In this document: piece by piece, positions 9,286 to 48,195 of the stretch
Layout: every line of letters begins with the position of its first letter
Numbering within the stretch: position 1 is the stretch's first letter
Assembly: GCF_000764305.2 (NCBI RefSeq)
Contig: NW_025936416.1
Coordinates: forward strand, 62,001-126,000
Direction of reading: 5' to 3'
Length of the DNA stretch: 64,000 bases
From: Hyalella azteca
Lineage: Eukaryota; Arthropoda; Malacostraca; Amphipoda; Hyalellidae
Notes under the pieces: model-generated
What the model was told of the DNA's origin: nothing
Database searches by the model: none
The model's input: the letters and a program-made list of their open reading frames with translations, nothing else
Program-made: the position numbers and the translations under genes

Positions 9286-9450
9286 AAAAAATATAACTCA
9301 GGACTCACTGCAGTGAGTGACAGAGCGCATTTTCTCGTCGACGAAAACTTGAGGTCACGGACGGACGAACAGACGGACAGACAGACAGACAGACGGACAT
9401 GGCGGGCACAATAGTGCATTTTTTCCTTAAATGAGAAAATGCGCTAAAAA
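9286..9450 (+). mobile_element. Foldback/microsatellite family, copy A
   Basis: Order of parts: an A-rich start with ATAACTCA, the 16-bp palindrome ACTCACTGCAGTGAGT, the arm AGCGCATTTTCTC (9324-9336), GTCGACGAAAAC, a GACA/GACG tetranucleotide tract, ATGGCGGGCACAATAGTG, and the inverted arm GAGAAAATGCGCT (9433-9445). No coding capacity. The ends behave like those of a short non-autonomous element, but I could not identify a target-site duplication. Confidence 0.85.
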
Positions 9451-12400
9451 TGTTGTTTAATTGGTGCAATAGGTAAAACATACTTAGGCCTCTGACAGAA
9501 CTGCGGCGCGTGTGATTGATCATTTAGGTGAGCCAAATTTCCTCCCTTTCCTTAGAGGTAAAATAAACTGGCTATTGAACTGAATGGGAGCTTGGTGTAA
9601 TGTATTAAATCGAAATGAACGCAATTAGAATTTGATTTTGTAAATTATTTTATTATTATTTTTTGCTATATTTTTCTTAATGCGTTTCATGCGAGAGAAC
9701 AGTAGAGGATGACAGGCATTGTTCAAGCAAGTCGGAATAATGCATTTGAATTTTAAGAAGATTTGTGATACACGTTTGCAGCAAAAATTGGTAATTTTAT
9801 TAGCTATTCCTAATATTTTCACCAAAAATCAGAAAAAATAGCTTTTATTATTAAGATTCAATAGTGAAACGTCGTTTTACTCTCATGAAGTTTAAGCTTT
9901 TTGATATTCGATCTCATCTTACTATCGTACATCGGTATATCATTCCAAATGAAAATTCAAAGATGAAAACTTCACAAGCTTGTATTTTTGAATTTATTTA
10001 AGATTTTCAGGCTAGTTGAGAAATTTTATTTTTGATCATTGAGTCTAAGAATTTTGATGGTAAAACTAATTTAGTATTCTATAAGTATATTTAACTAAAG
10101 GTAATTTAAAGGCTGTTTAAAATAGTCAATGCATTATTATTTCAGTATTATTAATCATTATTTAATTCATTTTTAACAAATATATTATGTTCCCTATTCG
10201 AGATAATTTATGAGCGAATAACTTCGTAATTAATTCAGCTTCACTTATTAAAGTTAATCTTACAAATTGCCCATCATGATCAAAATAAATGTGAACATCA
10301 TTTCGGGAGACCATGGATAACGCTAAATTTTGTATTACGGTTGCGTTAAATACATTATTTCCATGGTCGAATGATTGAGGATGTGAGGACGAATACATTC
10401 AAGTATAAGGATACATAATTAAAAGTTTATACATAAGATCTTATATTGGTAGTACGGACTGAGGCAAATGTTATTCCAAAATTGTTTATTTAATTTCATG
10501 TTCTTCCCTCATTATATATATAAGCATTATTATGTGGACACCTGATATATTCAGAAAGAAAGAAACCTGAAAGATTCAGAAAGAATATGATCAAGTCTAT
10601 CAGCTCAAGAACATGATACAAACACAAAACAACAAACACAAACGAAATAACAAAAGCATATTTAATTGCTCTAAATCGTGTCAGAGTGAAGCGGCTATTT
10701 CATAAGGTAGAACAAATAATACAAATGGTTTGGACTGGAGAGCTCCAGGACCTGCCCAAGAGATGCTAATTCAAGAAATTTTATGGTATAGCTTGAAGAA
10801 TGCAGACTGGCTGAGCGAGTCTCTGCCAGATACTGCGCAAGAAATGAAACTTGTATCAAGGAATGTTACCCACACTCCTGCACAGGTAGACGATGGAAAC
10901 ACGCGTTGGAGGGGTTACTGCGATAGTGTGGCTAGACGCACAAACAATTCAAGGTCAGAGACCTCGCAACTCCGGCAGCAAAAAAAATATATATTTTTTC
11001 ACCTGATTTTTTTTTGTGCGGTTTGAGCTAAAAGATAAATTATAGATATGCAGATATATTCCTGCTTATATTCATCTTGAGTTGAATTGTATTGTGTGGA
11101 AATTCAAGATTCTGATTCTGAAATTTTTCGTTTTCTCGCATTTTTATTTAATTTAATTTCCTCCCAGGTATATCCATTCTTACTAAAAAACATTTTTAGA
11201 TAAATTGAACAAATGATCGCAGATTAATCGTCCCAACGGAAAATGCATATGCCGTTAAGTGCATTCTTGACATGTTCGATTTTTGTAAAACAATTCCGTT
11301 GCCGAAAAGTTCAATGAGAACATTTTACATTCCAATAAGCAATCGACTCAGTTGCACTTTGTCACCTTGCAGACGGTGGCTGAATCTCTGGTATAGTAGG
11401 AGATTCAAATCATATACTGAATAGCAATGACGTTATAAACTACTATTGAATCAATAATCCGCTATAGTGCCTAATTATCAATATCATATTAGTTTATTTC
11501 GTTTAGAATTTCGATAGAGAGTGAAACGGCAATAATTGTACAGATTAATTCAGCGGTTACTACTCATGATCCTTCAGATACGTACTGGTCCTATTTAAGC
11601 AAAGTTTATTAGTTGTCTTCACCAGACCTTAAACTTTGTTAAATTTGTCCCGTATTTTAAAAAATCGGAAATCCTTCGTTTAATCCGTTAATGACATCAA
11701 TCCCCAAATATTGCCGTTAAAGTTTGAATTTTTTTGAATGCTATTAATTTAGTTTGTGAAGCTTATGTGGCAAGTTTAATTCATTTCAAAATAGATTACT
11801 GCAATTTTACTATTAAGTATTCTGAGTTAAATTTTTCAATGTAAAATCAGTGATAATTTTATATGCACTAATTATTGGTTAATGTAATTATTTTGAATGC
11901 CAAAATACAAACAAACAATTCCATAAAACCAACAAATAATTGGGCAAAAATAAAAATATAAGTACCTGTTACTAGAAAAAAAATGTGCAGCACTAAGTAC
12001 AAAATTATTCACATGTAATCGTCTACTTTAGACTATATTAATTCGTCTTCCGAAGATGCTCGTTAAATAAATATGATGAAAGGTACTGGCACATCAAAAC
12101 TAAAAACAGAATATTCATAACTCTTATTTATAGCCCGATAAGTGAAATTAAATTCGCAAATATCAAACATTAACTGAAAAAAGTGATGATTTCAGATGTT
12201 TACACCTATTCTGCTCCATATTACTGCTCCTCCGTTAAAACGATAAGAACGGTATTCAAGAACCAAAGAAATTTCCTGTTGCAATAAAGATAACTCGATC
12301 ATTTTAGTGAGCAGCTTTTAATTAAAAGATTTCTATAACGACCATACTTTCTGTTGTAAAACATCGCAGCTGAGGATCGCATGTCCCGATACGGTGCATA

Positions 12401-12469
12401 GCATGCGAAGTTAACATCATTAGTTTGCCACACAATGACTGCAGCTTCCTTTATCTTTGTGAAAAAAGC
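9451..12469. other. Mostly featureless AT-rich stretch
   Basis: The only notable part is a locally GC-richer open segment on the plus strand (about 10730-11026, roughly 98 codons without a canonical ATG at its start) that ends in an A run near 10980. It could be a decayed retroposed sequence, but I recognise no protein. The rest shows nothing. Confidence 0.4.
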
Positions 12470-13283
12470 TGAAGGCTGTGGAAAAAGTACAACTATTTTG
12501 GTCAAATTTAGTGAAGGGTAATTTTGTTGATTTGTTTCCGCAAGTTCGGAGGGAATGAGAGAATTCCTTTTTAATATAACTCTAAATTTCACTTTGGCGC
12601 AGTATAGTTTCGATGGTGAAGGCTGTGGAAAAAGTACCACGGTTTTGGTCAAATTTGGTGAAGGGTAATTTTGTTGATTTGTTTCCACAAGTTCGGAGAG
12701 AATGAGAGAATTCCATGTCAGTATAACTATAAATTCAACTTCGGCACAGTAGCATCGATGGATATTCAACCCGTGGCACTTTTGAAGGTGAGATTCTGTT
12801 CCGATTCCCTATAAATTTTAACGGGAAAATCTTTGTTTTCGTTGAAAATGTAAACAAAGATTTTTTCAACCAACTGTTTACATCGAAAATCAATGCAAAC
12901 AGATGGTCTCAGCGCTAACACAACAGGTTGAATCGGACAATCAAAGAACTACGCAAAGAACCAGCTCAACCGAGCTGTGGAAAAAGTACCATGATTTTGG
13001 TCAAATTTGGTGAGGGGTGAATTTGTAGGTTTGTTTCCTCAAATCCGGAGAGAATGAGACAATTCCATTTTATTAAAACTCTAAATTTCAGCTTGGCTTA
13101 GTAGTATGCATGGATATTTAACCCGTGGCCCTTTTGAAGGTAAATCTCGGTTTCGACTCCCTATAAATTTTACAGGAAAAATAATTGTTCACCATATTGT
13201 AAACAGTTGGTTTCAGAGCCAATCCAACAGGTGGAATTAGTCAATTAAAGAGCTACGCAAAGAACCAGCTCAACCGCTCCAGT
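12470..13283 (+). repeat. Three-copy diverged tandem repeat (147-352 bp units)
   Basis: CTGTGGAAAAAGTA begins at 12476, 12623 and 12975. Each is followed by TTTTGGTCAAATTT, a TTGTTTCC segment and GAGAATGAGA. The second and third units extend further through CCCGTGG-CTTTTGAAGG, CCCTATAAATTTTA and CTACGCAAAGAACCAGCTC; the first is truncated. The first spacing is 147 bp, a multiple of three, so the minus strand stays open for 156 codons (12299-12769) with a repeated block of about 49 residues. That frame is best read as a by-product of the repeat. Confidence 0.88.
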
Positions 13284-13761
13284 AGCCTTGCATGCTTGAC
13301 AGCATGAATAACTGTTAGTGAGGTCTCAACAGGGCAATCTAGGGATTTGTACATTCCTGTGCTGTATCGGGGTCGTTTCTCATTTCCATAACAAGTTTAG
13401 GAGCCTAGAAACCTGAAGACCTTGCATATGTTGCGGAGAACCTGAAGTTCTTATTGCGCAGTCACATTATCCACATTTGCTTCGCTAAATTACCAATTAT
13501 CAAGTAACAATGAGCCATTGACAGATAATTTTAATTTATCTCCTTCGGAGTTATCGGCAAATTTTAAAATGGCAGGCTGTTATGTTTGAAGAAGTATACT
13601 TCAGAAATTCAGAATTACGTCCATAATGAGAACGTTGGGATTCAATAATACAGGTGCACATGGCTGAGTTTGAGTGATTTTCAGTTAAGTTCATTCATAT
13701 GCAGCAAGAATTCGATCAAATTGAATTTTAAAGACATCATTGAACGCCTAATAGTTATCAC

Positions 13762-14567
13762 AGCGCTAGTTCACTCATGGTACAGGTGTGTGCTACGTGT
13801 TACAACTCGCTCAGATACCCGACAAGAAACGAAGGCATTAGACAAAAATAGACTTAACATAAATGCCTACAATGCCCTTGTAGACAGACGCCATCAGGAG
13901 CTTTGTGCAGCAATATCTGGTCAAGGCAATATGGATGTTGCTGCCTGATGATACAAAAGGATTAATTTTCTTCATTTTCAACGGACTGATTTTCCTTTTC
14001 CTTCGTGCAATTTTTTAAACGGTTTCCTCATCGCCGTTACACTAAAATCTTGCTTAATATCAACATGATTAATGTTGAATCAGTAGCGTACGTATTTTCA
14101 CCTAAAACATCAAGCAAAATTTTCTCTTCGTGAGTGCAGCAATAGTACACTCGTGGTGCACGTGTGTGCTACATGTAACATCTGGCTCAGATACCCAGCA
14201 AGAAACGAAGGCATTAGACAAAATATATGGAACGTAAATGCCTTAAAAGCCCCTATATATAGAGATGGACACCATCAGGAGCTTTGTGCAGCAATATATG
14301 GTCAAGGCAATATGGTTCTTGCTGCCTGATGATACAGATGGATTCATTCATTGAATCCATTTTCAAATGAATGAATCCATTTGAATCCATTCCTGATTCA
14401 TTTTCTTCATTTTCAACGGCCTGGTTTTCCTTTCTCCTTCGTGCATTTCTTAAACGGTTTCCTCATCGCCGCTACACTAAAATCTTGCTTAATATCAACA
14501 TGATTAATGTTGAATCAGTAGCGTACGTATTTTCACCTAAAACATCAAGCAAAATTTTCTCTTCGTG
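13762..14567 (+). repeat. Tandem duplication, about 376 and 430 bp
   Basis: Copy 1 (13762 to about 14135) and copy 2 (14138-14567) share GTGTGTGCTAC, GACAAGAAACG-type sequence, CATCAGGAGCTTTGTGCAGC, TGGTCAAGGCAATATGG and a long conserved end from AAAATCTTGCTT to AAAATTTTCTCTTCG. Copy 2 carries about 55 extra bases (14340-14395) made of repeated GAATCCATT/AATGAATC. The conserved end can fold: ATCAACAT pairs with ATGTTGA, and AAAATCTTGCTT with AAGCAAAATTTT. Confidence 0.9.
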
Positions 14568-15477: not shown

Positions 15478-16030
15478 GGGCCTATACTTTCAAAAAAATT
15501 TATGAGATCGTAAGTTCATTAGCCAATCATTGACGGCCTTTCAAGCAAAATCCACCAATCATAGACAATAAAATAGAACGTAGGTACTTACGGGTCTCTA
15601 ACATTCGAGGATTATCAAAGAGGTTCAGCAAATTTCCAGAGACCACAAGGTATATATAATTTGTCGGGTTACAATGTAACCCCGCAGCCACGACATAGGA
15701 CTATAAACCTAATTCATTTAGGTTAAGTATTTCAAGGTTAAGTATTTTTTTACTTAAACTTTGTTTTTTTTTTTATTTTTAGGTTAAATATTTTTTTTAT
15801 TAAGTATTAAGTACAGACATTATACAGACATTTAGACGCAGATATTTAGAGACATTACAGACATTACAAAGTGTAATGACACAGGCAAAAGTCGGCTGCT
15901 TACTCTTAATCAGCTGCTTCTCGAGGAAACAATCTACTCATACTTTTTCTCCTTAGTCTTAGTCAGAGAGGTGCGGCGGCTGAAGAAAAGTAACAGCGTT
16001 TTAAGTTCGGCCACAAGGCTGGCCCGCTAC
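15478..16030 (+). repeat. Dispersed repeat, reference copy
   Basis: The left part (15478 to about 15600, CCTATACTTTC to TACTTACG) matches 24230-24355 in inverted orientation. The right part (about 15590-16030, GGGTCTCT to GGCTGGCCCGCTACA) matches 36885-37215 in direct orientation. Shared words in the right part include CAGCCACGACATA, CAGACATTACA/GAAGTG, GGCAAAAGT-GGCTGC and GAGAGGTG-GGCGGCTGAAGAAAA. No coding capacity is visible. The composite arrangement suggests one longer dispersed repeat, of which the other two sites keep different portions. Confidence 0.8.
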
Positions 16031-17820: not shown

Positions 17821-17821
17821 C

Positions 17822-20157: not shown

Positions 20158-21026
20158 TTAAGGGGAGCGTCTGGGGTAAAATTTTGAATTTTGGCTTTTC
20201 CGGTTTTTAGTCTCATCTTAAAGCTGACATTCTGCTCTATCCAACGGTACCAAAATCATCTCTGTACGTTGATTTATGCGTTCACGACAGCTTGCAAAAG
20301 GGGGGGTTCGGGGGAGTTCTTTCACATTTTAGGTGGGCGATAATTCCCGGTAGCATGCATAAATAGCTAGTCCACATCAAGGAGGTTAGATGACTGGAGG
20401 CGGCGCAGCCAGTTTTATTAACGCGGGAGGGCGAAGCCGAGCCATCTCAGTAAGCCACATGGCGGCAGCCAGTGCAAGGGTCAGTTGACTAGCGGAGAGA
20501 TCGGAGAGTAATTCACTCTTTTCGCTATTATCTTCCTCGGACCTACTGAATTATTTATTTATTGCTATCATGTTTGTAGGAAACACTGATGGTTCGGGTT
20601 AGAGAAAAATTGTGTTCCTGAAACTGTTTATTACTCCATTTGAACACTTATACTGAATATAGAAAAGAGNGGGGGTGGCGGGGGGGAAAATCAAAAAATT
20701 TTCGAAAAATTTACGAAAAATGCTCCCACACCCACAAAAATGAGAAATCCTAAAAACCCTCGTGTTACGTTTTAGATATGGTTTTTACGCATCAAATGAT
20801 ATGTGTCTCGATGTTGTAGCTTGAAAATCCTAGGAGGAGATAGATTTCTACAGTACCCCCTTTTTTGGCCGTTTTCTAATAATTTCACGTTTTATTTTAT
20901 TTTTTTTCGAAAAATTCACACGAACAAAAATGTCTTAGAATTCTGTTTTACATATGTGTACCAAGTTTCAGAGTGATCCGTCTGTGAATAGCCGAGATAA
21001 ATTTTACCCCCAGACGCTCCCCTTAA
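20158..21026 (+). mobile_element. TTAA-flanked terminal-inverted-repeat element
   Basis: TTAA at 20158-20161 and again at 21023-21026 bracket an 861-bp element. Its ends are inverted copies of GGGGAGCGTCTGGGGTAAAA; the right end has one extra G. A TTAA duplication is the signature of piggyBac-type integration, so a non-autonomous element mobilised by such a transposase is the natural reading. No transposase frame is present. The right half holds pyrimidine- and A-rich runs and TTTTTCGAAAAATT. A GC-rich patch (about 20380-20500) is unlike the rest and may be captured or nested sequence. One ambiguous base lies at 20670. A partial relative lies at 54637-54985. Confidence 0.82.
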
Positions 21027-22664
21027 TGCACAAACAAATTATTAATGAACCGTTACTATATGGCCTATTGAACACTTATACGTATGTTAACACTTAGGTG
21101 CTCCACGTCAAACTTCAGGCTTGAGGTTGAATTTCTGGGCTCGAGGTTGAGGCTTTCCTAAAAGAACCAAGTAGAAATAGATCAATAACTACTAATAAAA
21201 TAAACTATACACGATACACATACCTAAAATGTGAAATCAATTATTTACACAATCTGTTCACATCATTATTTACATATCTACAATACATCGGATCCTATTC
21301 TCACACATACCTCCGCTCCGGCTTTCCACAGCACAATAACAATTTCACCCTAACATTCCGCACCTTTCCTCCGGTTCACTCTAAACTAAAATGACAATGT
21401 AATATTTTGGCAAATAAACAATATTACCTTAAAGTTGCTATATATCCCTTACAGTATTTCTATCCATGCCAAAATTTCAGTTGGATTTGTTAGATTCTCT
21501 TGACTATATGCACCGCCTGGCAGTTATAACTGAAGTCGGTGCTCGGAGCAGCTAACGTTCAATACTGACCGACCTTAGCTCATTGCCGACAACTCATGAT
21601 CGATTGCAAGAGCTCTATCTTGAAAAATACTTCTCTCTCTATTACTAAGCTCAAAAACTCAAACATATGTTGTTCGTGTACAGCACGAATGTAAATTCAT
21701 TATATCTCTACTAATGAAGAAGCGCATCAGTTTCTTTTTACCACTCTTAAGTTCTACGAAATGTTATCTATTTCGGTATAGGATTCGGTGAATCGAACGA
21801 ATGTGTTGTGTTTAATTCATGTTGTGAGTTATTTATTGGTGAGGAACAACGTGTCAAATAACGTTAAATGCATTAAACATAAACGTGTTCTCGAGCTCGT
21901 TAACTTTTAACAGACATGTTTAAAGAACCAGACAATGCATCAATTAACTCTTGACTGCATGCATGCTTACTTTACGGTTTACTTACGAAGTAACTTGGCT
22001 ACAAGCTCTAAATTTGTCTGCAGATGTAATAAAGGGTTATTCTTTGAGCGAAATCGTGATAATTTAGGCCTTGAGAAGTACTCAAGCGGTCACCTGACTT
22101 CGTGCGTGAATATTAAGGCTAAAGCTTTATTTACTACCATTTTTGCTTAAAAAAATGCTGGGCAAAGATGATGCAAGGAGTCATAGACACGGTGTTGTTT
22201 GCATCGCTAATTCTAGAATTATGCTAGTCTCGTATGAGTATCGTAAAGAATTGGTCATCAACGTCCAACCTAATAGACCATATTGGAAAATTGTTATACC
22301 GCAAGACACTTCCTTTAAATTCTGAAGAGTGAGAATCTTTAGTTCCTTGTAATAATATTTGGCCGTCTGAACCCTGTAAAATAAATCCCCATTTCAAGGA
22401 AAACCAGTTCCTTCTAGCCTTGCTCAAAATTCGCAAGGAAATGCCGTGTAAAATATCTTCAAAATTATTAAGTTTTTGCAAGTTTACTTAACAAATATTT
22501 GTTCGAAAAATGATTTGGTTATTAAGTGTAAAACTGAGAAACTATGTTCATTGAAGACTGTATAAGTTGTCGGCAGTATAAGCACTATCAGCTGAGATTT
22601 ATATTAAGCTTTCATTTTATTTGCAGTTCAATTAATTTTTTCGATATTAATTATTTTAAGTTAG
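21027..22664. other. Non-coding stretch with short open frames
   Basis: Short plus-strand frames (21935-22150, 22143-22325) overlap and show no recognisable domain. GAGGTTGA is repeated near 21123 and 21142. No supported feature. Confidence 0.4.
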
Positions 22665-24229: not shown

Positions 24230-24355
24230 GTGAAACTCGTACTTACGCTCCATTTTCTTGTCTATGATTGTTGGATTTTGCTTGGAAGGCCGTCAATGAT
24301 TGGCTGATGAACTTACGATCTCTTAACTTTTTTTGAAAGTATAGGTCCTGGAATT
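24230..24355 (-). repeat. Dispersed repeat, inverted partial copy
   Basis: The reverse complement of this segment matches 15478-15600. Shared words include AGCCAATCATTGACGGCCTT, AAGCAAAATCCA and AATCATAGACAA. It abuts the start of the 298-bp tandem pair at 24360. Confidence 0.85.
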
Positions 24356-24359
24356 TTAT

Positions 24360-25441: not shown

Positions 25442-25540
25442 TGGCGCTAGACTCTGCCATCGGTGAATGCGAACCGTCATCAAATCGTCCACAAAACTTC
25501 CCATTCAATTGAATTAAAATTTTCTGCTGTTTGAAGGTGA

Positions 25541-25700
25541 AAAAATATAACTCAGTACTCACTGCAGTGAGTAACAGAGAGCGCATTTCCTCGTCGACGA
25601 AAACGTGAAGTCACAGACTGACAGACAGACGGACAGACAGACGGAGGGAAATATGGCGAGCACAATAGTGTATTTTTCCATATATGAGAAAATGCGCTAA
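25541..25700 (+). mobile_element. Foldback/microsatellite family, copy B
   Basis: Same order as copy A: AAAAATATAACTCAGT, the ACTCACTGCAGTGAGT palindrome, AGCGCATTTCCTC (one change in the arm), GTCGACGAAAAC, a GACA/GACG tract, and GAGAAAATGCGCT near 25686-25698. The tetranucleotide tract is interrupted by GGAGGGAAAT. Confidence 0.85.
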
Positions 25701-26047
25701 GAAGTGCTGCATGCGCATATAAATAAATTATCATTTTATGAGATTTATGTAGAGTTATTAAAAATATTTATTCAAGCACCAACGTACGGAAAGTTAACAC
25801 TCGTGAATTCGCATTCTAAACTCATTTCAATGTATTAAAATAAAAACAATGCAACCTTTGGAGCCTCCCCGAGGCAAGTAAATAATATAAATAGTCATTG
25901 CAATGTGTATATTATTATTTGCTTCATACGGAAATTTTTGGGAGTTGCCTTATCTGACACAATCTCGATTATTCGAGCCACAAATTGTTTTCGACTCAAA
26001 AGCAAGCGGTAATTTCATTGTTTTTATTTTTAACCGTGTAGACTTAT

Positions 26048-26217
26048 AAAAAATATAACTCAGTACTCACTGAAGTGAGTGACAGAGAGCGCATTTTCTC
26101 GTCGACGAAAACTTGAGGTAACAGACGGACGGACAGACGGACGGACGGACAGACAGACAGACGGGCATGGCGAGCACAATAGTGCATTTTTTCCATAAAT
26201 GAGAAAATGCGCTAAAA
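26048..26217 (+). mobile_element. Foldback/microsatellite family, copy C
   Basis: Same structure, only 350 bp from copy B and in the same orientation. The palindrome has one mismatch (ACTCACTGAAGTGAGT). The GACG/GACA tract is longer than in B. Both 13-bp arms (AGCGCATTTTCTC and its complement) are intact. Confidence 0.87.
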
Positions 26218-26393
26218 ACGGAATACTATTACAGCAAGAAAAAGTCGAAAACTATATAAAACATTTGCTCAAATGAATTCCTATTTTAATATGGAATCAC
26301 ATTGACTGAACGAGAATATCATAAATGATATTGTTCACAGTAATACGAATTTTTGGGGTTTTCAGGGTTGCTGAGGCAGAGGAAATTTTTTCA

Positions 26394-26804
26394 GGGCTGG
26401 CAGAGGAAGTGCAGGAGCTCATTTTAGGGCTGGCAGAGGAAATGCAGGAGCTCATTTTAGGGCTGGCAGAGGAAATGCAGGAGCTCATTTTAGGGCTGAC
26501 AGAGGAAATGCAGGAGCTCATTTTAGGGCTGGCAGAGGAAATGCAGGAGCTCATTTTAGGGCTGACAGAGGTAATGCAGGTGCTCATTTTAGGGCTGGCA
26601 GAGGTAATGCAGGAGCTCATTTTAGGGCTGGCAGAGGAAATGCAGGAGCTCATTTTAGGGCTGGCAGAGGTAATGCTGGAGCTCATTTTAGGGCTGGCAG
26701 AGGAAATGCAGGTGCTCCTTTTAGGGCTGGCAGAGATAATGCAGGAGCTCATTTTAGGGCTGGCAGAGGTAATGCAGGAGCTCATTTTAGGGCTGGCAGT
26801 GGAA
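26394..26804 (+). repeat. 33-bp minisatellite, 12 units, open on both strands
   Basis: Twelve consecutive 33-bp units start at 26394, followed by a partial unit. The spacing is an exact multiple of three, so the plus strand reads as repeats of GLAEEMQELIL (open 26325-26888, 187 codons) and the minus strand as repeats of MSSCISSASPK (open 26297-26785, 162 codons). Variation between units is almost all single-base (EEM, EVM or EIM; QEL, QVL or LEL), with no frameshift in any unit. There is no promoter, splice or codon evidence for a gene, and I treat it as a minisatellite. Confidence 0.92.
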
Positions 26805-29762
26805 ACTCATTATCTGTCATCACGTTTTAAATTGGGCTCGGTATGCGTACTTTGGACAGTATCCATACAAAACATGTCGCGGCTATAAATCTGATTCGGG
26901 AATAATGTTAGACCGTATAACTTCGAATCTATATATATGATATTGTGCTTAAATTAGACGAGGAAATTAATTTGGATGATTTTAGATTTACATGGATTGA
27001 AAATTTTTATTTGATTTAAATTATGGAGAATTTCTTAAACATATTAAAATAAAACCGATAGTTCATTTTATTCCTATATTTGCTAGTCCAGAAAAAACTC
27101 AATGACGATAAAATTATAAAATCTTCATGGTAAATCTTCAACACTCTATACGGTATAAAGTTTTGAGTAAATAAAAGCTTAATAGGCTTTTATAATATAA
27201 AAATATAATATAGTATAATAAAAATTATACTATAAGAACACAACGCACAATATCACCTCGCCATACCGGTAGAATAGAGTGTAAAAAATAGATCACCTGA
27301 AATGTTAGTAAGATTTTTCGAAATTCGTAGTGAAGCGTAGATAAATTAAATAATTTTAATACTTAGATGATAATTAAAGCAAAAGCTTTAATCTGTAATG
27401 CAATAGAAAGATTGAGAGATAATTATATATTGTAAATACCTTTACAAATTTTCAAACTTCGTTTCACCAATATGCTAGATTTTCGGAGTACTTAATCTTA
27501 AAAAATCAGGAAACAACAATTTTCTGAATTGTTGAAATTGCCTCCGATGTGGAAATTGAAAGTTACACAGGAGGCGGATTTGCCCTAATACTGTTTTTTT
27601 TTATAATTAACCCCAATGCTGAGCAGAACATGGATAAACACGGCTGGGATGGATGATGAACAAAATCAAATTTTGTTCCAGCTCACATTTCCATACAATC
27701 ACACCATAATAATCACAAATGGCCCTATTTAGTGCCCAAAATCATATTTTGCAGACGTTTTGTGTGCCTATTGAATTATTCAAAAGTTAAGGAAAGTTCT
27801 ATAGTATATATTGAGCATTTCATCTTGTCGTACATAATAGTGGAACGTTCCCAAGTGAAGTTATATGATTGCTCAAGTTAATACGTAAGCACTGGAAGTA
27901 CGTCAATACATATGTATGTATAATTACATATGATCACTCTATACTTAATACATATGTATCATTTTTTCTATACTTCTATGCGTGATCACTATTCTTATAT
28001 ACCTCACTCGAACAGGGTGAATATAAAAAGTAAGCAACGATTAAACTCCACTTCATGAACGTGGTGGGTAATTGGCGAAGAATGTGATACGCGAGCATGA
28101 GACTGACTCTCATCTCTCATTACCTGCTGACTACTCACACGAGTTTAGCTGTTCAATACAGGATTGCGGCGAAATAATTGACTACACTCGGTGACCAAGA
28201 TTTGAGACCGCAATGTCGTAAAGAATTAAGTAATTGTTATTTATTGAGCAAATTCTGGGAATTAGTTGCACTAAAATGATATTTGCGGCAAATTATTTCT
28301 TGGAAGTCATGGTCTCGATCGGATTGCATCGTTACGATAACCGTTGGTTGACCAGACGTGGCTACTGAACTGGAAGTCACCGCACACAATGGTTGACTGT
28401 ATGATTATTGTTTAATCGCCTCCGGGTAACTACAGGTCGAATGCTGTACTCGCTTCAGTTAATGGGCAGCAACCTGCTTGGTGCCTGTAAAACAACGTTG
28501 CAAATCGTAAATTTAACAGAGTAATAGTGTTTTGGATGTCATCATTCTTGTATTGCCCGTTCATTAGCGATAATGACATAGAAAATGATGCCAGCCGATC
28601 GAAGTTATCCTGAAAATCATTAAACATTGTCCGTAGAGTGTTCAATTTAAGTAAAACTACGAACTATGGAATAGAACTGTAAACAATGACTGTTGGAATC
28701 ATCAGGAGTTGATAGCAAGGTTTTGCATCAAAGTATTGGTTTAAAATATTTTACAAGGCTTAAATTCGACGCTACTCGAATCAAGCCCTGCAATCACCGT
28801 TGAACGGTTGTACCGAAATGCGAATATGTGCTAGGCTTTCTCGTCAGAGTTTATCTCCTAGTTTCAGCGTTGCCAGATGGTATATTTCTATACCAAATTT
28901 CACAAATCTGGTATTCTCGCCGAGACAAAACCTGGCCACACTGCCTAGTTTTACTGGTTCTACAGAAACCATTGATGGGTATGCAAGAATCTGTATCCCG
29001 CATGTTCAGCCCGCTGCACTACATCGATGATAGTCTTGATAAAATCCGGAGTCTGGTTCCGTTCTTTTGACGAAGTTTTCTGTTAGAGACGCATGGCTAA
29101 TTTTCGTGGTTGTTCAAGCAAGCAAAATATGTTTCTGCCTTTCATATTAATGCTATTAAGGTAAAAAGTTTGCAAGAATTTCAGTGAGTTTGAAAGTAGA
29201 GAAGGGATGGTTATTTGTATGTGACGTATCAATGAATGGTCTTGATTTGAATGGTCTCGAAAGTGAAATACCGATCATTGATTTGCCCTTTGTCAGTTAG
29301 GTTATAGATGGGACGTTGATAATGTATTTGGCGTATCAGCTGATTGTATTTATTTTCATATACACAACGATTAGCCATATATTAATTTATGCTCAATGGC
29401 TATCATTGAAATATAATCGAATAATTTAATCCTCTTCAAGCTTATATGAAAATTATCTTCAGTGAAGTACATAAGGTGGTATATAGGTAGGGTAATGCTT
29501 CAGTAAAAATAAAAAAATAATGTGTGGTGCGTATCTTGAAAAAGTGTGTTTTTTATCGCTTTTAATTTATTTGTACAAACTAATAATAATGAACATTTGC
29601 ATAAAAGATATGCCTAGGTTTGTAAATTCAGACAAGTGGAAAAAAATCTTACACACTTTTCTTTCGATCAGACGAAGAACTCCCCAATTCGACAAATCAT
29701 CAATTCAATGATGAGCTTCACTCATTCAAGATGTATTGTTCAGGTGCCGACAACATTAATCA
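26805..29762. other. Long non-coding stretch
   Basis: AT-rich, with ACATATGTAT-type words near 27905-27955. A GC-richer segment at about 28800-29070 is open in two overlapping plus frames, neither recognisable. No feature supported. Confidence 0.42.
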
Positions 29763-29927: not shown

Positions 29928-29943
29928 ACGTAAAACTTATCAG

Positions 29944-36127: not shown

Positions 36128-36296
36128 CAAAAAATTTAACTCGGTACTCACTGCAGTGAGTGACAGAGAGCGCATTTTCTCGTCTACGAAAACGTGAAGT
36201 CATGGACGGACAAACAGACGGACAGACAGATGGACGGACGAACATGGCGAGAACAATAGTGCATTTTTTCCATAAATGAGAAAATACGCTAAAAAT
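36128..36296 (+). mobile_element. Foldback/microsatellite family, copy D
   Basis: AAAATTTAACTCGGT, palindrome ACTCACTGCAGTGAGT, arm AGCGCATTTTCTC, then GTCTACGAAAAC, a GACA/GACG tract, and the right arm with one change (GAGAAAATACGCT). Confidence 0.87.
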
Positions 36297-36884: not shown

Positions 36885-37215
36885 TGGGTCTCTGCCTGAG
36901 GGCCCTAATTTGATCAGCGAAGTTTCATAGGCCACAACGTATATTTGAATTACATGGAGAAACCACAGCCACGACATAAGACTTTAAACTTGATGCAAGT
37001 AGGTTCACGAGTGCAGAAAAAATACAGACATCAAATACAGATATGTACAGACATTACGAAGTGGTAAGTCAGGCAAAAGTAGGCTGCCTACTGCATGGCA
37101 ATCTGTTGTTTCCCTAGAAAACTATCTACGCCTTCTTTTTCTCTTCAGTCATTGTTAGAGAGGTGTGGCGGCTGAAGAAAACTAATAGCGCGGCCATGGC
37201 TGGCCCGCTACACCG
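36885..37215 (+). repeat. Dispersed repeat, direct partial copy
   Basis: Matches 15590-16030 from GGGTCTCTG to ATGGCTGGCCCGCTACA with many substitutions and gaps. Immediately beyond its end comes a CCGCTA repeat (37205-37232), and before it lies another CGGCCGCTAC-rich patch (36780-36860), neither present at the 15.6-kb copy. Confidence 0.8.
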
Positions 37216-40863: not shown

Positions 40864-41107
40864 CCGTAATGGATAGAAATCGTCTAACATTATTACCGCG
40901 GCATTATTTTGCTTTAAAATTGGTTATGGAATTTCCCGATTTGGAAGTTCGCGAGACGAATGTTGAAATATTATTGAGCGGTGGAAAGCCGAAATGGAGG
41001 TGAATGATTTGTATGGATGTGATGTAGATGAATAGAAAAAAATGTACGGATATTTTGTGAATATTTAGGTCTATTGTTGATTTGATTGATTGTTGTGTAT
41101 TGATTGA

Positions 41108-41247
41108 AAATGCGCTAAAAATATAACCCAGTACTCACTGCAGTGAGTTACAGAGAGCACATTTTCTTGTCAACAAAAATGTGGTCATGGATGGATGGAT
41201 GGATGGACGGACAGACAGACGGACAGACGGACATGATGAGCACAATA
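41108..41247 (+). mobile_element. Foldback/microsatellite family, copy E, truncated
   Basis: The left part is typical: ATATAACCCAGT, palindrome ACTCACTGCAGTGAGT, AGCACATTTTCTT, then a GGAT/GACA/GACG tract. It stops at GAGCACAATA, where the right arm should follow, and passes straight into the Gypsy fragment. Unusually, it is preceded by GAAAATGCGCTAAAAA, which is the right-hand end of the family. So the right end of one copy and the left end of another are joined here. Confidence 0.82.
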
Positions 41248-41605
41248 ATCTTAGGAAAATTAGCCGCGGCAGGTGTAACGCTCAATAAGAAGAAATGTTC
41301 ATTTGGGTACAATAGTCTCAAATTCTTGGGATTCATCGTTGGGGAGGGAGACGAGACCTGATCCAGAGAAGGTAGCTGCGATCAGAAACTTTCCTTTGCC
41401 TCAGGATAAGAAATCCCTTCGTTCATTTCTAGGGTTGCTTAATTTTTACCGTCGCCTCATACCAAATGTATCAAATGTCATAGCCCCGTTGACAAGCCTG
41501 TTGCGTAAACCGTTTCCAGATAAACTTGTATGGACAGAGGATGGGCTGAACAATTTTAAACTTGCTGTAAAATTAGTATCAGACCTTTTGTATCCCATTG
41601 GCTAC
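41248..41605 (+). pseudogene. Ty3/Gypsy retrotransposon polymerase fragment, frameshifted
   Basis: About 120 codons of reverse transcriptase, from the end of the palm into the thumb/connection region. The family landmarks are clear: LNKKKCSF, then SLKFLGFIV, then RPDPEKVAAIRNFPLP, then LRSFLGLLNFYRRLIPN and LTSLLRK. The first two lie in one frame (through about 41361) and the rest in the next frame, so there is a one-base frameshift between about 41333 and 41362. The catalytic part of the reverse transcriptase is missing upstream. Similarity fades after about 41605, where RNase H would begin. No long terminal repeat, gag or integrase is seen. It is an inactive fragment joined on its left to a truncated foldback element. 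Confidence 0.93.
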
Positions 41606-41861
41606 AAATTTAACTATTGTTTTCAATTCTTGTGTGTAAGTCTTAATGCTCCGAATGGGAGAGGAGACGGAATTTATATTTTTACACTAAAAAGTTTAGT
41701 TATTTACCAAAGTCCCCACACGGGTGATATTTATTTGTATATTAGGCAGTGGTGCTGCATTAATGCGTTTTTAAGTGTGATGTATATTGTATAAGTTTGC
41801 CATGTGAGAATGCTATACGAACGGAAACTCCCACCAAGCTTTCTCACTCATACTAAAAATT

Positions 41862-41895
41862 CTTCTGATTGTTCATCATGAACATTATCAGAAGC
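41862..41895. repeat. Short interrupted hairpin
   Basis: CTTCTGAT and GTTCAT pair with ATGAAC and ATCAGAAG around a one-base centre. Confidence 0.7.
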
Positions 41896-41924
41896 CCTAA
41901 AATATTTACCTTTGTTGGTGGGTC

Positions 41925-42640
41925 ATTTCTTGGCTTCAATTTAGCTTCCCAGTGGCATTCATTTGTTGACTCCGGTTTCATTCATTTGTAGCAGTTTGGC
42001 TTCATGCTGGTTCCGCTCTAACTTTACTTTTTACCGCTCAATTTGAAGCCTAGTTGAAGAAAAAATTAAGCCACAGTGGCGTGTAACATTTATGGCGTGA
42101 AGCCGAAGTGAAACTAGGTGTAGCCAGAACATATCAGCCACACTGAAGCAGTGTGGCTGATATGTTCTGGCTACACCTAGTTTCACTTCGGCTTCACTCT
42201 TCATTAAGTTTGGTAATACTCATGGTGGACTTCAATGTTACACGCCACTGTGGCTTAAATTTTTTCTTCATTTAGGCTTCAAAATGACTTTGCTTTGGCT
42301 TCATACCTTGGTTTATTTTTAGCTTCACACGGGTTTAACTTGGACTTCATATAGGATTCATTTACATTTCCCTAGGTCTGTTATTCTAGTTTGAAATGAG
42401 GGTTCACGTGGCTGTAATCCTGCTTTTCATTGGGTTCGCTTAGGCTTTATTCTGGCTTTACACAAGGTTTACTTGGCTATCCTCTAGCTTTAAAACGGTT
42501 CAATTGCGCTTAATTGAGGCCTTATATAAGGTTCACTTGTCAGTATAATGGCTTTACATAAATTTCACTTGGTTTGTACTCTGGCATAGGATACTTCATT
42601 TAGACTTCTCTTGACCAGGGTTTGGCTAGGGCCTTGCTCA
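41925..42640 (+). repeat. Degenerate GGCTTCA-rich array
   Basis: Words of the form TTGGCTTCA, TAGGCTTCA, TAGCTTCA and GGTTTCACTTGG recur every 15-35 bases over about 700 bp, with heavy decay. No fixed period could be made out. The hairpin at 42043-42285 is built from this sequence. Confidence 0.65.
42043..42285. repeat. Long foldback: 48-bp perfect arms plus outer arms
   Basis: The inner arms 42097-42144 and 42150-42197 are perfect complements around the 5-base loop GAAGC. After an asymmetric interruption (7 bases left, 37 right), complementarity resumes in 42043-42089 and 42235-42285 (AAGCCACAGTGGCGTGTAAC against its complement, then AAAAAATT-type sequence) with a few mismatches. If transcribed, it would form a hairpin of about 90 base pairs. 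It has no coding potential, and nothing at the outer ends looks like a target-site duplication. Confidence 0.92.
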
Positions 42641-45600
42641 GGCTCCTAAAAAAAATTAGGACAGCTCCAGCACCCAAATTTGATTGGCCTCGATCATTGA
42701 TATTATTGATACCAAATTATTGATCACCTTTTGGAAATCTATTTCAAAATCATTCACAGTCATAAATTAGTTTTTCCTGTCTCGTATGGTCAAAATATTA
42801 CGTCTGCACTAATGTTGACTGTTAACATAGGCATTTTGTTTGATTACAGTTTCAATTCTGTTCACTGAAGCTACATAGACCACATCGTTCAAATTATCTT
42901 GACTGAATGTCAACATAAATTCTCTAGTATGTGTTCCCCGAATGTTTGACTGCACATAAATGTTTACTAGTAAGATAACGCAAATGAGGAAGATTGCATG
43001 GAAAATATTTGCTGTGAACGCAGGTTAAGTACGAGTTTATTCAAGGATGCGGGATTGATGAGTGAACGAGATGGGACATTTAGATAAGCAAACGATTCAG
43101 TAAGCGCGCATAATTGGAACCTAATCTTAATTAATTCTTCCAGAATGACTACTATCCACACAAAAGTTAATGGGAACGAAAATCATTTGAATCCAATGGT
43201 ATCTCACTGAACACTCGTTTGAACACTTCACTCGTATTTAGTTCTTCGTCGAATGGCCATTCGAATGTAGTGGCCATTCATTCGTGGTTTAAAATTGATT
43301 GCGTAAACAAAATGACGGAGAAATTCTGGGGGATCAATATCATTTTCGTCATATTAATAAAAATGTTCGCTAGGCATTTTTTCATTAGTACTTGATAGAT
43401 GTTTTTATCTCAATATGCATTAATAGACATTAGTGGATTACTGTGCAATTATTTCATTAGTCTTCAGTTACACCGCTCAATAAATACTCCATGTACAATT
43501 ATAAAATCACGCTGATGGTATGCAATACCATATCGCTTCATTCAGGCCAAATCCATCTATATAAACAATATAATCGTGATATCAGCATCATGGATCGATT
43601 ATAATAATAAATACAGTACGATTATTGATTTTTTGCAAAATTTAAACACATTTCAAATCGCTCACTCGAATCTTTGCTAATTACCTAATAACTCTGCGAG
43701 AAGTTTTAGTTTTACTTTGTTAAAATAAATAACCTGAACTATTTTCGTTAAAATGGTATTTATCGTTTAATTATCATAACTCTAAATCGTATTGAAAATT
43801 TCATATAATTTATATTACAAATATTTTATAATGAACTATATACTGTTTTAAAAAAATAATTTTTTAAAAACAGTATTCCTTTGAAATGTTCTACGTACAC
43901 GTTCAATCACTAGTCATTTTCCATGCAAATACAAAATTATTATTGGTGCTTAATTTCATTGCATGGCCAAGCTCCGATCCCTGAAAAATAAAATCTAAGT
44001 TATAGGCAGTCTGAATCTGGCATGGACCTTATGTCGGTAAAAAACAAGAAGCTTAAATTGCGTGTTCTGCTTACACGCAAGTGGAAACCATCTATGGACG
44101 AGGAACATAGTTCTGAGATACGAAAAACGAGTTCATATCATATAGATACTTTTATGATTAAAGGGTCAATTTCGATCCGGTGTTGTGTATGTTGTTACAA
44201 CTGACTCAGAATCGAGAATAAGATGATAAAATAACTAAGCGAACGAAAATTGCATTAGGACACAGCCAAAACCCACATTATTTTAGCTAAAAATTGTAGA
44301 GAAAATATTGTTGTTTGTAAATAAATTGTTTGTGTATTTTTTATTTTGATTTTAATATCTTCAGCACGCAAAATAGCTAAAACCCACATTATTTAAGCTC
44401 AAAATTTTCAAGAAAATAATGCCGTTTTTAAGTAAATTTATTATTTATTCTTAATTTTGCCATGATATTTTTATGAAATAAAAATTGTTATATTTTACAT
44501 TGTAACAAAGAAAGATCGATTGGAAAATAAATTGTCGTTGAAAGGCTTAAATTCATGTCGAGTGAAATTTGCTTGCTTTGCAACAATTCGAGCAGAACAG
44601 AATAGAAGAAAATATTTGTAGATAGAATTTCTAAATTCAAGTAACGTATGTCCTCTGATCGAACCTCAATTACTATTATGAAACAGTGCCGAAATTCATC
44701 TAAACGAAATTCTTGCCAAAAGTTCATATCGAAAAATTTCTGTCGTGTTCTTTTCATTGAATTTTCTTTGAACAACGATTGATTTTTATTTGTGAATGTT
44801 TCTGGGCCTGGGTTTGGTAGGAAGTAACTCATCGATTTGACTACATGAATGACTGGCCGTAAAACTCAATCCCATGTGACAAAAGAGTCATTTAGCTGAT
44901 ATATTGCCAAGCTCCAATGACTTCCCAGATTCAGTTTCGTATAAGGTAGAAGTCACTTAAGGTTTATGAATGGCCGGCGACAAATCAACTTAATTAGTTG
45001 ATGACAACGAAGCTTATGTCATTGAGTGTTAATTTGTTCTTAGATTTCTTTATCGGAACAGCCAGTCGAAAATATTGAGGTTGATCCTTGATTTAGCAGT
45101 TCAATTCGAAGGTGTTGCTTCAAATTGACCTTCATTTTCATGCATCTAAGCTTGGCTCATTAACATGAACAAATACAATTACTTTTCTTATGCCACAAAT
45201 TGACGAACGAGTTTCCCAACCTGTTCGAAACGAACGCAGTAGAAAGGCTTGGAATAAAATAAATTTTGGTGACAGTCCTTGTTAGTCCCCCGAATATTAG
45301 TTGGTGCAATGAGCCTGGTAGAAATATCGATTTCTCAAAGTATATAATTTTCTTTAAAATCTGAGTTTCTACGTTAAATGATTGAGTGTCGTTTTTTTAT
45401 AATAAATGTTAAATAAAGTTTTTCACTACAATAAAACAATTTGAGTCTTAATTACTTCTTGTACTTCAGTGATGCCACAACAGAAAAAACTGTGTTATTT
45501 TTCCATGTGAGGATTTACTCTAATAATTCACCAATTTTTATTTCAAGTGGATTAACTGAACGATCTCGTGGAAGGATCCATCTTAAATACCGATTTACCC

Positions 45601-48031
45601 CTACGAAATAAAGTATATTCGTAAGCTTTTCAACATGATTCATTCCACTGCCAGTTCAACATGTCTTTTTATTTTTCCCATGAGCTATGAGGTCACTGTC
45701 GCTCCAGCATGCATATAACAACATAGTATTATGTTACAAATTTTATAAAAAAATTATAAATTGGTCTGTCCAATATGGAGTTAAAAGAACGTTTAGTGGC
45801 TGACCTATTGTGATTTATGTATCAAAATAGCGCAATAGAATAGAAAAGAATTCGGGGACAAGTGGAGCCTAAAAGTATTGTAGAATCCAATATAGAGCTG
45901 GTAATTATCAATTAAGAAAAAAGTTGAATCAAATACAATCGTGTAATCATTATTTTTTATTGGTCAACATTTTTCAATTCTTCTCGAGCCACGTCGGGTT
46001 AACCTGCCTGTTGAATAAATTTAAGACTAGAGGATCATTTGGATTAGATTATAGGAGCTGAGGCTAATATACTACTCATGTCATGTCTGCTATATGGGAG
46101 TATATTATTGTACCATGAACTAGAAAATTGTCATTAAATACTAGTCAGTGATTGGAATAAAGAACTCTGAACTATATAGCAAGTGGTGAGAATACCTTAA
46201 GAGTTTTATTGGATGTTAGCGTTTTGATTATTTCGTTTGTTTAGTCGAAGAAAAATCCCATGCCAAACATATTGAAGCTAAATACTTAGAATTTTAATGA
46301 TAGAGCGGCACGATTTTCATATAAATTAGCTTGAAAAAAATACTTACTATTTCGAAAGAATAAACACTGATCGCTCCATTTCATCAGTAAACTTCGCGCA
46401 TTGCAACAATTATAATTCTCTGCATTGAAAAAATTACATTCAGAGTGGCAAATTAAGGAGCACGCTTAAAGAGAAAAATATGCCTTCAACAACGCACTTA
46501 TTGCTTTTTTAAAATGTATTATAAATTCTTCCGTTTGCAAGGCCTTCTTATTCATATCTTCTCGAATTGATGCCAATATTCAATTGCGGTTAAATTACTT
46601 GGATACGCCACGCTACTGAGAAAAATATATCAGTTACTCAAAGTATCACAAAGTTTTTAGTTGAGAGCTCTAGTACTAATTCTAACAACTCATGCGTGCT
46701 TATTTATTACACTTCAAGATTTATTTTCCCTCTAGAATAATTCTATAAGTGAATCTGATAAGGTCAAGGTTTAACAGCTATAGGGATTATAGATATGGGT
46801 TTTCGATTACGTCAGTCAGCGGCTTCTATTCCAAAGAAATTCCTGGTCGCGGCATTGCGACTCTGCATTACATTTCGACACGCTCGTTCCACCTTAAATT
46901 ATTTTTATATATTTATTTTTGCGCTGAGGCATTTTTGGGGGAGCGAGATGAACAGTTGCGATAGCTGGCTAAGCGCAACGTGAAGTCCGCGTCCAGTGCA
47001 TGTCGCTCGTAATGAACATAATTGAAATGACCCTTGCAAAGGCCTCTTTAGTTCCTTGTTCCAAACTATTGTCCCACCTGCCATTTTGTTTGCAGTCTGC
47101 TGTATCATTTCAGAAAAAAATGTGTTAGAAACAGAGTTTAGCTTCATTAAGCGGTCACAATATTCGAAATATCAATGCTTGCTGTGAAGAATGTCTTTTT
47201 AATGTTAATTAATCCATCCACAAGTTCTTTGTATGTTAGAAATAGACTAAGTCCTTGGTAAAAAACCTAAATTTATAATATTGAACTTCGCTTCATTTGT
47301 CCATCAGCGTGTTGAACAATTAATTAAAATTGGACGATAAGAGTGAAGTCTTTCAAGATGCTTTTCACCGCCTGGGCTCTTGAATTAGTAATGATAAAAA
47401 ATATCAATGCAAATAATTTGCAGAGACTTATATTGACAAGGTTTACATTGGGATCCTTATTTGCATATTCAGTATATTAATTGGCTTCTTCGTTATATCT
47501 ATCGATGCTGACTGGAGTGAAGCTGAGAGAAATCCGACATAATTAAGGTTGCATTGCTCATACGAATCTTGCATCCAAAGTAATAAAAATATTATTTCAT
47601 TTCAGTCAGAAAGTTCACAAACTTTGTGATGAATTTATGGTTTAGTTCTAAAATCGTCTATGATTTATTTATGATTTAATTCTAAAATCGCCTTCAATAT
47701 TTCGCCAAAGACATAAATACCCGGCAGTATTATGTTCACCATTAAAAATTGTGGTTGGTGCATTGAGTGTAAATTGTTCCCGTAGACGATTATTGGGTTC
47801 TCATCACCGATGGACCTACGACTGGGTTCTTACCATGGATTGTTTTGTACGAAAATTCTCATACATACCTACAACGAATGGATATCAATTGACATATGTT
47901 TGACATATTAAGCATTAAAATGCACCGTATCGGTGCTAAAATTATTTTGAAATAGTTGTAGTTTTCAAGCTTACTGGCCTGCTTATATGCAATCGGTTAC
48001 TAATGAGAAGAAGGAATCCAATAATTTTACA
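42641..48031. other. Long non-coding stretch
   Basis: Contains a small palindrome (43250-43263), an AT-rich hairpin (43840-43876, ATACTGTTTT against its complement) and short dispersed repeats at 44266-44450. A minus frame of 114 codons (44488-44832) and overlapping frames near 46750-47150 show no domain or splice support. No gene supported. Confidence 0.42.
44266..44450 (+). repeat. Short dispersed repeat, two tandem-like members
   Basis: AAAACCCACATTATTT is followed by AGCT-AAAATT and GAAAATA-TG in two members, at about 44268-44330 and 44380-44445. A third member lies at 24076-24150. Each is about 65-75 bp and AT-rich. Confidence 0.7.
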
Positions 48032-48195
48032 TTTTTAGCGCATTTTCTCATTTATGGAAAAAATGCACTATTGTGCTCGCCATGTCCGTCTGTCTGTCTG
48101 TCTGTCTGTCCGTCTGTCCGTCCGTGACCTCAAGTTTTCCTCGACGAGGAAATGCGCTCTCTGTCACTCACTGCAGTGAGTACTGAGTTATTTTA
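48032..48195 (-). mobile_element. Foldback/microsatellite family, copy F
   Basis: Reverse orientation: TTTTTAGCGCATTTTCTC first, then CACTATTGTGCTCGCCATG, a GTCT/GTCC tract, GTTTTCCTCGACGAGGAAATGCGCT, palindrome ACTCACTGCAGTGAGT and ACTGAGTTATTTT. The inner arm has one change, as in copy B. It is the longest uninterrupted tetranucleotide tract of the minus-oriented type. Confidence 0.88.

What the first reader, a model, noticed from the sequence alone, without database searches (positions are those of the whole stretch)
9286..48195. Six-copy foldback family with palindrome, inverted arms and internal microsatellite
Copies at 9286, 25541, 26048, 36128, 41108 and 48032 share one architecture: ATAACTCAGT, the 16-bp palindrome ACTCACTGCAGTGAGT, arm AGCGCATTTTCTC, a GTCGACGAAAAC box, a GACA/GACG tract, a GCACAATAGTGCATTTTT box and the inverted arm GAGAAAATGCGCT. 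Six copies in 64 kb implies a very abundant family. The tetranucleotide tract varies between copies while both flanks are conserved. That means the microsatellite travels with the element and seeds new microsatellite loci genome-wide. I do not know a named family with these parts.
Basis: seen in the sequence. Interest (0 to 1): 0.78.

Follow-up and report, generated by a model that had tools for sequence, protein, structure and literature searches.

The report
Small rolling-circle transposon carrying a microsatellite
Six scattered copies of a roughly 165-base non-coding repeat look like an ordinary animal HINE (DINE-1-like) element, a small rolling-circle transposon that borrows another element's enzymes and is already known to carry this kind of four-base microsatellite.

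Summary
The repeat is real: five complete copies and one rearranged copy; the 16-bp palindrome occurs 6 times against 0.17 expected. It is not a symmetric foldback element. On its transposon strand it reads T-run, 13-bp 5' subterminal inverted repeat (subTIR), partial inverted repeat of that arm, GTCY tract, 13-bp 3' subTIR, short spacer, 16-bp palindrome, GAGTTA, T-rich end. That is, part for part, the published anatomy of HINE/DINE-1 elements, the non-autonomous Helentrons (Helitron2 type), GTCY microsatellite included (passages). A scan for the architecture without its sequence hit only two of these copies and gave nothing in 20 shuffles. The sixth copy (41108) is truncated but keeps a head-to-tail joint of two element ends, as rolling-circle products could leave. 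The microsatellite does travel with the element: all 5 uninterrupted GACR/GTCY tracts of at least four units in the window lie in copies; such carriage is already published. Not tested: genome-wide copy number, empty sites elsewhere, the autonomous partner (genome search did not complete, 11 tries), Repbase/Dfam. Host unknown. New member of a known kind; low interest.

The parts
9286..9450 (-). HINE copy 1 (complete): 5' T-run 9446-9450, 5' subTIR 9433-9445, IR 9413-9426, GTCY tract about 9361-9399, 3' subTIR 9324-9336, palindrome 9303-9318, 3' end with T-run from 9286
25540..25703 (-). HINE copy 2 (complete): 5' run TTCTT 25699-25703, 5' subTIR 25686-25698, 3' subTIR with one change 25580-25592, palindrome 25557-25572
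26048..26218 (-). HINE copy 3 (complete, 99.1% to consensus outside the tract): 5' subTIR 26201-26213, IR 26181-26194, GTCY tract about 26121-26164, 3' subTIR 26088-26100, palindrome with one mismatch 26065-26080
36129..36295 (-). HINE copy 4 (complete): 5' subTIR with one change 36278-36290, IR 36258-36271, interrupted GTCY tract, 3' subTIR 36169-36181, palindrome 36146-36161
41106..41248 (-). HINE copy 5 (81.2% to consensus, rearranged): lacks its own 5' end; 3' subTIR with two changes 41156-41168, palindrome 41133-41148, 3' end joined through TTTTT (41117-41121) to the first 11 nt of a second 5' end (41106-41116)
48032..48194 (+). HINE copy 6 (complete, opposite strand): 5' T-run 48032-48036, 5' subTIR 48037-48049, IR 48056-48069, GTCY tract 48083-48122, 3' subTIR with one change 48146-48158, palindrome 48166-48181

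Best explanation
A HINE family: a short non-autonomous Helentron (Helitron2-type, DINE-1-like) transposon of about 165 bp in an animal-like genome. Inferred mechanism: a Rep/helicase made by an autonomous Helentron elsewhere in the genome recognises the ends, nicks one strand, peels it off by rolling-circle replication, stops at the 3' subTIR plus palindrome, joins the ends head to tail, and inserts into a T-rich site without target-site duplication. The 3' subTIR can pair with the 5' subTIR in competition with the weaker hairpin that the 5' arm makes with its neighbouring IR; published work proposes that this sets the end point. The GTCY tract is an internal part of the element, copied with every insertion. 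Shown here: anatomy, common ends, T-rich flanks, dispersed copies on both strands, one head-to-tail joint. Inferred: the enzyme, strand transfer, and that the family was ever active in this host.
For: Order and spacing of the parts in 5 of 5 complete copies: 13-bp 5' subTIR, 6 nt, IR, GTCY tract, 13-bp 3' subTIR, 5-7 nt spacer, 16-bp palindrome, 9 nt to the end of GAGTTA. Passages of published work list the same parts in the same order: 12-15 bp subTIRs (13 in DINE-1), IR 3-22 bp from the 5' subTIR, microsatellite, 3' palindrome 8-35 bp from the end, T-rich or TT target, variable numbers of T, and Helitron2 ATIRs with two hairpins. GTCY is the published microsatellite of Drosophila DINE-1 and GTCY/GTCC/GTCK that of several Cg_HINEs. 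At least 4 T in the 5 nt before the 5' arm in 5 of 5 complete copies (random 0.054) and TTTT within 8 nt after GAGTTA in 5 of 5 (random 0.060); these cut-offs were set after seeing the copies. Sequence-free architecture scan: 4 overlapping hits, all from two copies, 0 in each of 20 shuffles. One whole copy folded as a strand pairs the two subTIRs and makes the 3' hairpin, z -3.53, 0 of 200 shuffles as stable. Alignments among complete copies end within about 12 nt of the element ends. Identity 90.8-97.3% among the five complete copies outside the tract.
Against: No Rep/helicase was seen, but only 20 of 95 ORFs of at least 70 aa were scanned with Pfam. No empty site in the window, so insertion without duplication is not demonstrated. 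The modules alone fold only modestly better than shuffles (z -0.43 to -2.48, 11 modules); the full arm-to-IR hairpin is the best structure in 1 of 5 complete copies, the others pairing only its inner five bases. Three of five complete copies have one changed base in one arm. The architecture scan missed three of five complete copies. The distance from the 3' subTIR to the end (30-40 nt by where the T are counted) is at or below the 38-60 given for mite HINEs and at or above the 20-30 given for Helitron2. The 2008 DINE-1 paper called these elements MITEs and marks target-site duplications in a figure (abstract and passages); the 2014 paper found none. No long central repeat is present.
Confidence: 0.93

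Rival explanations
1. A foldback element or classical terminal-inverted-repeat MITE moved by a DDE transposase.
For: Two 13-bp inverted arms can pair; small, non-coding, dispersed. DINE-1 itself was once called a MITE (listing).
Against: The arms are asymmetric, about 5 nt from one end and 30-40 nt from the other, with a palindrome outside the second arm only, in 5 of 5 complete copies. No duplicated bases other than T are seen at the ends.
Confidence: 0.04
2. A product of tandem or segmental duplication rather than an independently mobile unit.
For: A 99.5% identical 1.67-kb duplication ends about 100 bp from copy 1; copies 2 and 3 are 0.5 kb apart.
Against: That duplication stops before copy 1 and its other unit has no copy beside it. 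Copies lie on both strands and their alignments end within about 12 nt of the element ends.
Confidence: 0.02
3. A canonical Helitron (Helitron1) derivative.
For: 3' palindrome near the end, no visible duplication, head-to-tail joint at 41108.
Against: Ends are not 5' TC / CTRR 3', and the paired subterminal arms and 5' IR are Helitron2/Helentron features in print.
Confidence: 0.01

Closest known systems
DINE-1 / INE-1 / mini-me of Drosophila (non-autonomous Helentrons)
   Same: 13-bp subTIRs, partial inverted repeat beside the 5' subTIR, GTCY-rich microsatellite, stem-loop a few nt after the 3' subTIR, TT or T-rich target, no significant ORF (passages, PMC2374699; PMC4067079)
   Different: The published elements have a conserved core of about 90 bp with a (TA)4 repeat and a variable central repeat region; the consensus here shows neither. 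The letters of their core were not compared with this family.
Cg_HINE elements of the Pacific oyster
   Same: subTIR, IR and microsatellite (GTCY, GTCC or GTCK in several) in the left module; subTIR and palindrome in the right; T-rich sites; no TSD found (passages, PMC7492417)
   Different: Cg_HINEs were found through 100-500 bp central tandem repeats; this family has none. Their subTIRs are usually 11-12 bp, here 13.
HINE-Mo of the mite Metaseiulus and HINE-Cq of Culex
   Same: 12-15 bp subTIRs near the 5' end and subterminal at the 3' end, palindrome 8-35 nt from the 3' end, variable T-runs, microsatellites in some copies (passages, PMC4067079)
   Different: Their subTIRs are themselves palindromic and the mite families lack the IR; here the IR is present.
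Helitron2 of Bao and Jurka 2013
   Same: Asymmetric terminal inverted repeats of 8-15 bp, a 5' hairpin built from the 5' arm, a 3' hairpin after the 3' arm, insertion next to TTTT in Chlamydomonas members (passages, PMC3627910)
   Different: No coding part here; autonomous partner not seen.

Membership tests
HINE / DINE-1-like (non-autonomous Helentron) | Subterminal inverted repeats (at least 11 bp), near the 5' end and set back from the 3' end | tested here: met
   13 bp in 5 of 5 complete copies; both arms identical in two, one changed base in one arm in three. About 5 nt from the 5' end and 30-40 nt from the 3' end, depending on how the T are counted; mite HINEs 2-4 and 38-60
HINE / DINE-1-like (non-autonomous Helentron) | Palindrome or stem-loop just after the 3' subTIR, 8-35 nt from the 3' end | tested here: met
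   16-bp palindrome 5-7 nt after the 3' subTIR in 5 of 5 complete copies, 9 nt before the end of GAGTTA; its stem is predicted in 6 of 6 copies
HINE / DINE-1-like (non-autonomous Helentron) | Partial inverted repeat of the 5' subTIR next to it | tested here: met
   GGAAAAAATGCACT or GGAAAAATACACT 6 nt after the 5' subTIR in 5 of 5 complete copies; folding of the module alone is weak, z -1.00 to -2.16, full hairpin best in 1 of 5
HINE / DINE-1-like (non-autonomous Helentron) | Microsatellite between the modules, GTCY-rich in DINE-1 and several Cg_HINEs | tested here: met
   6-10 GTCY units, not always contiguous, in 6 of 6 copies; published motif
HINE / DINE-1-like (non-autonomous Helentron) | Insertion into T-rich or TT sites | tested here: met
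   T-rich at both ends in 5 of 5 complete copies, random frequencies 0.054 and 0.060, cut-offs set after seeing the copies; which T belong to the element is not resolved
HINE / DINE-1-like (non-autonomous Helentron) | No target-site duplication, proved by empty sites | tested here: inconclusive
   No duplicated bases other than T seen at five copies; joined flanks find no empty site in the window; the whole genome could not be searched
HINE / DINE-1-like (non-autonomous Helentron) | Autonomous partner encoding Helentron Rep/helicase with the same ends | tested here: inconclusive
   No such domain in 20 of 95 ORFs scanned; rest of the genome not searchable
Canonical Helitron (Helitron1) | 5' TC and 3' CTRR ends | tested here: not met
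   Ends read TTTTTAGCGC... and ...GAGTTA followed by T-rich sequence
Foldback / TIR MITE | Symmetric terminal inverted repeats | tested here: not met
   Arms asymmetric in 5 of 5 complete copies
Foldback / TIR MITE | Target-site duplications | tested here: inconclusive
   None seen other than shared T; a duplication made of T alone cannot be excluded without empty sites

The most novel reading that the evidence does not exclude
The GTCY tract is not a passenger but an old, conserved cis-acting part of Helentron-type elements: the same motif sits between the 5' subTIR/IR and the 3' module in Drosophila DINE-1, several oyster HINEs and this family (here on the transposon strand in 6 of 6 copies), perhaps as a strand-opening, loading or size-buffer segment for rolling-circle replication, kept by selection although its length drifts. 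Against it: the oyster paper describes the tract as eroding by mutation and reports other motifs of 3-8 nt in other elements, and mite HINEs have microsatellites in some copies only.
Probability: 0.15. Interest if true: 0.5.

Novelty: new member of a known kind. Interest (0 to 1): 0.17.

Why it matters
It puts a name and a mechanism class on an unexplained repeat, and suggests that GACA/GACG (GTCY) microsatellites in this genome may often be multi-locus transposon sequence and so poor markers (inference from one window). If the GTCY tract proves to be kept across phyla by selection, it would point to a functional part of Helentron-type elements that has been treated as a simple repeat.

Tried and rejected
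Tried without result: the genome search on the window's own genome was asked eleven times in the same form and never answered, so copy number, more flanks, empty sites elsewhere and the autonomous partner stayed untested. Exact patterns of the 3' and 5' modules gave 0 matches in viral contigs. Rfam gave 0 matches at gathering score. Pfam on 20 of 95 ORFs gave one RVT_1 match below its cut-off and three weak matches in one other ORF. A text search for four sequence strings gave 33 papers, 20 listed; in the 20 listed only the 10-base palindrome core occurred, in papers whose titles are unrelated; the 13 unlisted were not seen. Seven paper searches were made in all.

Considered and rejected: that the second unit of the 1.67-kb duplication (4003-5676 against 7514-9187) offers an empty site for copy 1; it ends about 100 bp short of the element. 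That a longer HINE with separated modules lies in the window: module profiles found nothing outside the six copies better than E 3.8. That the 33-bp tandem array at 26389-26805 is the central repeat of copy 3: it starts about 170 bp outside that element. That a second head-to-tail joint lies near 6183: the short joint pattern GTTATAT(3-8)AGCG matches there too, but no palindrome, arm or further 5' end surrounds it, so I take it as chance. One search's pairwise identities are not used because its masking of the tract failed for some pairs; one search replaces them. One search failed in its last step after printing the alignment; one search repeated that step.
Full report
WHAT IS THERE. The 16-bp palindrome has six matches (five exact, one with a single mismatch) against 0.17 expected, and none of 100 shuffles reaches six. 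The 13-bp arm has 16 matches with up to two mismatches against 2.08 expected, all in or at the edge of the six copies. A profile built from the copies finds those six and no seventh. Five copies are complete: 9286-9450, 25540-25703, 26048-26218 and 36129-36295 on the minus strand, 48032-48194 on the plus strand. The sixth, 41106-41248, is more diverged (81.2% to consensus against 93.7-99.1%) and rearranged. Among the five complete copies the parts outside the microsatellite are 90.8-97.3% identical.

ANATOMY ON THE TRANSPOSON STRAND. Reading the minus-strand copies as reverse complements, the consensus is: T-run; AGCGCATTTTCTC (5' subTIR); 6 nt; GGAAAAAATGCACT, a partial inverted repeat (IR) of that arm; ATTGTGCTCGCCAT; a GTCY tract; a stretch with GTTTTCGTCGAC; GAGAAAATGCGCT (3' subTIR); CTCTGTC; ACTCACTGCAGTGAGT; ACTGAGTTA; T-rich end. 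Departures: copy 9286 lacks two bases of the spacer, copy 25541 starts TTCTT, copy 48032 ends GAGTTATTTT, copy 26048 has one mismatch in the palindrome, and three of five complete copies have one changed base in one subTIR. The arms are not symmetric: one lies about 5 nt from its end, the other 30-40 nt (30-32 to the end of GAGTTA, 38-40 with the T-rich end), with the palindrome outside it.

ENDS AND TARGET. Alignments among complete copies end within about 12 nt of the element ends, and the flanks beyond look unrelated in the alignment. At least four of the five bases before the 5' arm are T in 5 of 5 complete copies (random 0.054), and TTTT lies within eight bases after GAGTTA in 5 of 5 (random 0.060); the cut-offs were chosen after seeing the copies. 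No repeated bases other than T are seen at the two ends, but which T belong to the element, and whether T is duplicated, cannot be told without empty sites. Joined flanks matched nothing else in the window, and the 1.67-kb duplication near copy 1 stops about 100 bp before the element.

STRAND FOLDING. One whole copy (26048), the only one folded whole, pairs the 5' with the 3' subTIR over 13 bp and forms the 3' hairpin, z -3.53, 0 of 200 shuffles as stable. Eleven separate modules were folded. The six 3' modules all form the palindrome stem but only z -0.43 to -2.48. The five 5' modules give z -1.00 to -2.16; all pair the inner five bases of arm and IR, and the full arm-to-IR hairpin is the best structure in one of five. 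So the 5' hairpin is weak compared with arm-to-arm pairing.

THE SIXTH COPY. At 41106-41248 the element lacks the 5' subTIR and nearly all of the IR, and there runs into sequence whose frame weakly resembles the end of a reverse transcriptase domain (RVT_1, E 0.0052, 17 bits against a cut-off of 29.6). At its other end GGGTTATA-TTTTT is followed at once by AGCGCATTTTC, the first 11 bases of another 5' end. This is a head-to-tail joint of two element ends, as tandem rolling-circle products or a joined-end circle could leave; a second insertion into the T-run of the first copy is also possible. It is one case. The short joint pattern also matches near 6183, with no other element part around it.

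COMPARISON WITH KNOWN ELEMENTS. All papers were seen as passages, not whole. PMC4067079 gives for HINE/DINE-1: 12-15 bp subTIRs (13 in DINE-1), an IR 3-22 bp from the 5' subTIR in DINE-1, microsatellites or tandem repeats, a palindrome 8-35 bp from the 3' end, T-rich or TT targets, variable T numbers, and no target-site modification at empty sites. [quoted passage not shown] that earlier paper called the elements MITEs and marks target-site duplications in a figure. PMC7492417 gives the same parts for oyster Cg_HINEs, several with GTCY/GTCC/GTCK microsatellites, T-rich sites and no duplications found; it could not tie them to an autonomous Helentron. PMC3627910 gives the Helitron2 model in which arm pairing breaks the 5' hairpin and sets the replication end point. 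PMC5148889 reports PCR products with joined ends in a related fungal group, which rolling-circle amplification did not confirm. The family here meets the structural features that could be tested; its 3' arm lies slightly nearer its end than in mite HINEs and slightly further than in Helitron2. Empty sites and an autonomous partner remain open.

SPECIFICITY CONTROL. A scan for the architecture without its letters (T-run, exact 11-bp inverted pair, hairpin within 12 nt after the second arm) gave four overlapping hits, all from copies 9286 and 26048, and none in each of 20 dinucleotide shuffles. It missed the other three complete copies, which have a changed base in one arm. The scan was designed after the family was known.

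THE MICROSATELLITE. The tract holds 6-10 GTCY units, not always contiguous, in the six copies. All five uninterrupted GACR/GTCY tracts of at least four units in the 64 kb lie in copies of this element; copy 36128 has an interrupted tract. So in this window the element is the source of this kind of microsatellite. Carriage of microsatellites by such elements is in print; the mini-me paper on the genesis of microsatellites was seen only as a citation. The same motif in fly, oyster and here suggests that it belonged to an ancestral element; that it is kept by selection is my most novel reading, untested, with evidence against it.

LIMITS. The own-genome search did not complete (eleven calls). Repbase and Dfam are not on hand, so this very family may already have an entry. 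Only 20 of 95 ORFs of at least 70 aa were scanned for domains.

VERDICT. Most likely a new member of a known kind: a minimal HINE, ordinary in structure and in its cargo. Confidence in the class 0.93; interest 0.17.

Noticed in passing
4003-5676 and 7514-9187: A 1,674-bp direct duplication, 99.5% identical, offset 3.5 kb; its second unit ends about 100 bp before HINE copy 1. Recent segmental duplication or an assembly effect.
   Followed up: partly
26389-26805: 33-bp tandem array, 12.6 copies, 94% matches, open in three frames as ORFs of 151-187 aa, about 170 bp beyond HINE copy 3 and outside it.
   Followed up: no
41249-41794: Fragment weakly resembling the end of a reverse transcriptase domain (Ty3/gypsy type is from recall) that starts about where HINE copy 5 breaks off.
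   Followed up: partly
42097-42197: A 101-bp stretch 97% identical to its own reverse complement, candidate for another foldback or palindromic element.
   Followed up: no
20687-21027 and 54632-54971; 15481-15587 and 24239-24345; 15847-15998 and 37036-37190: Further dispersed repeat pairs, the first two on opposite strands, 78-92% identical, not overlapping the HINE copies; perhaps other small transposons.
   Followed up: no
48134-48158 in copy 6: One upstream base change (CGTCGA to CCTCGA) sits opposite the one-base change in the 3' subTIR, giving CCTCG-A-CGAGG. Possibly compensatory; copy 2 has the second change without the first.
   Followed up: no
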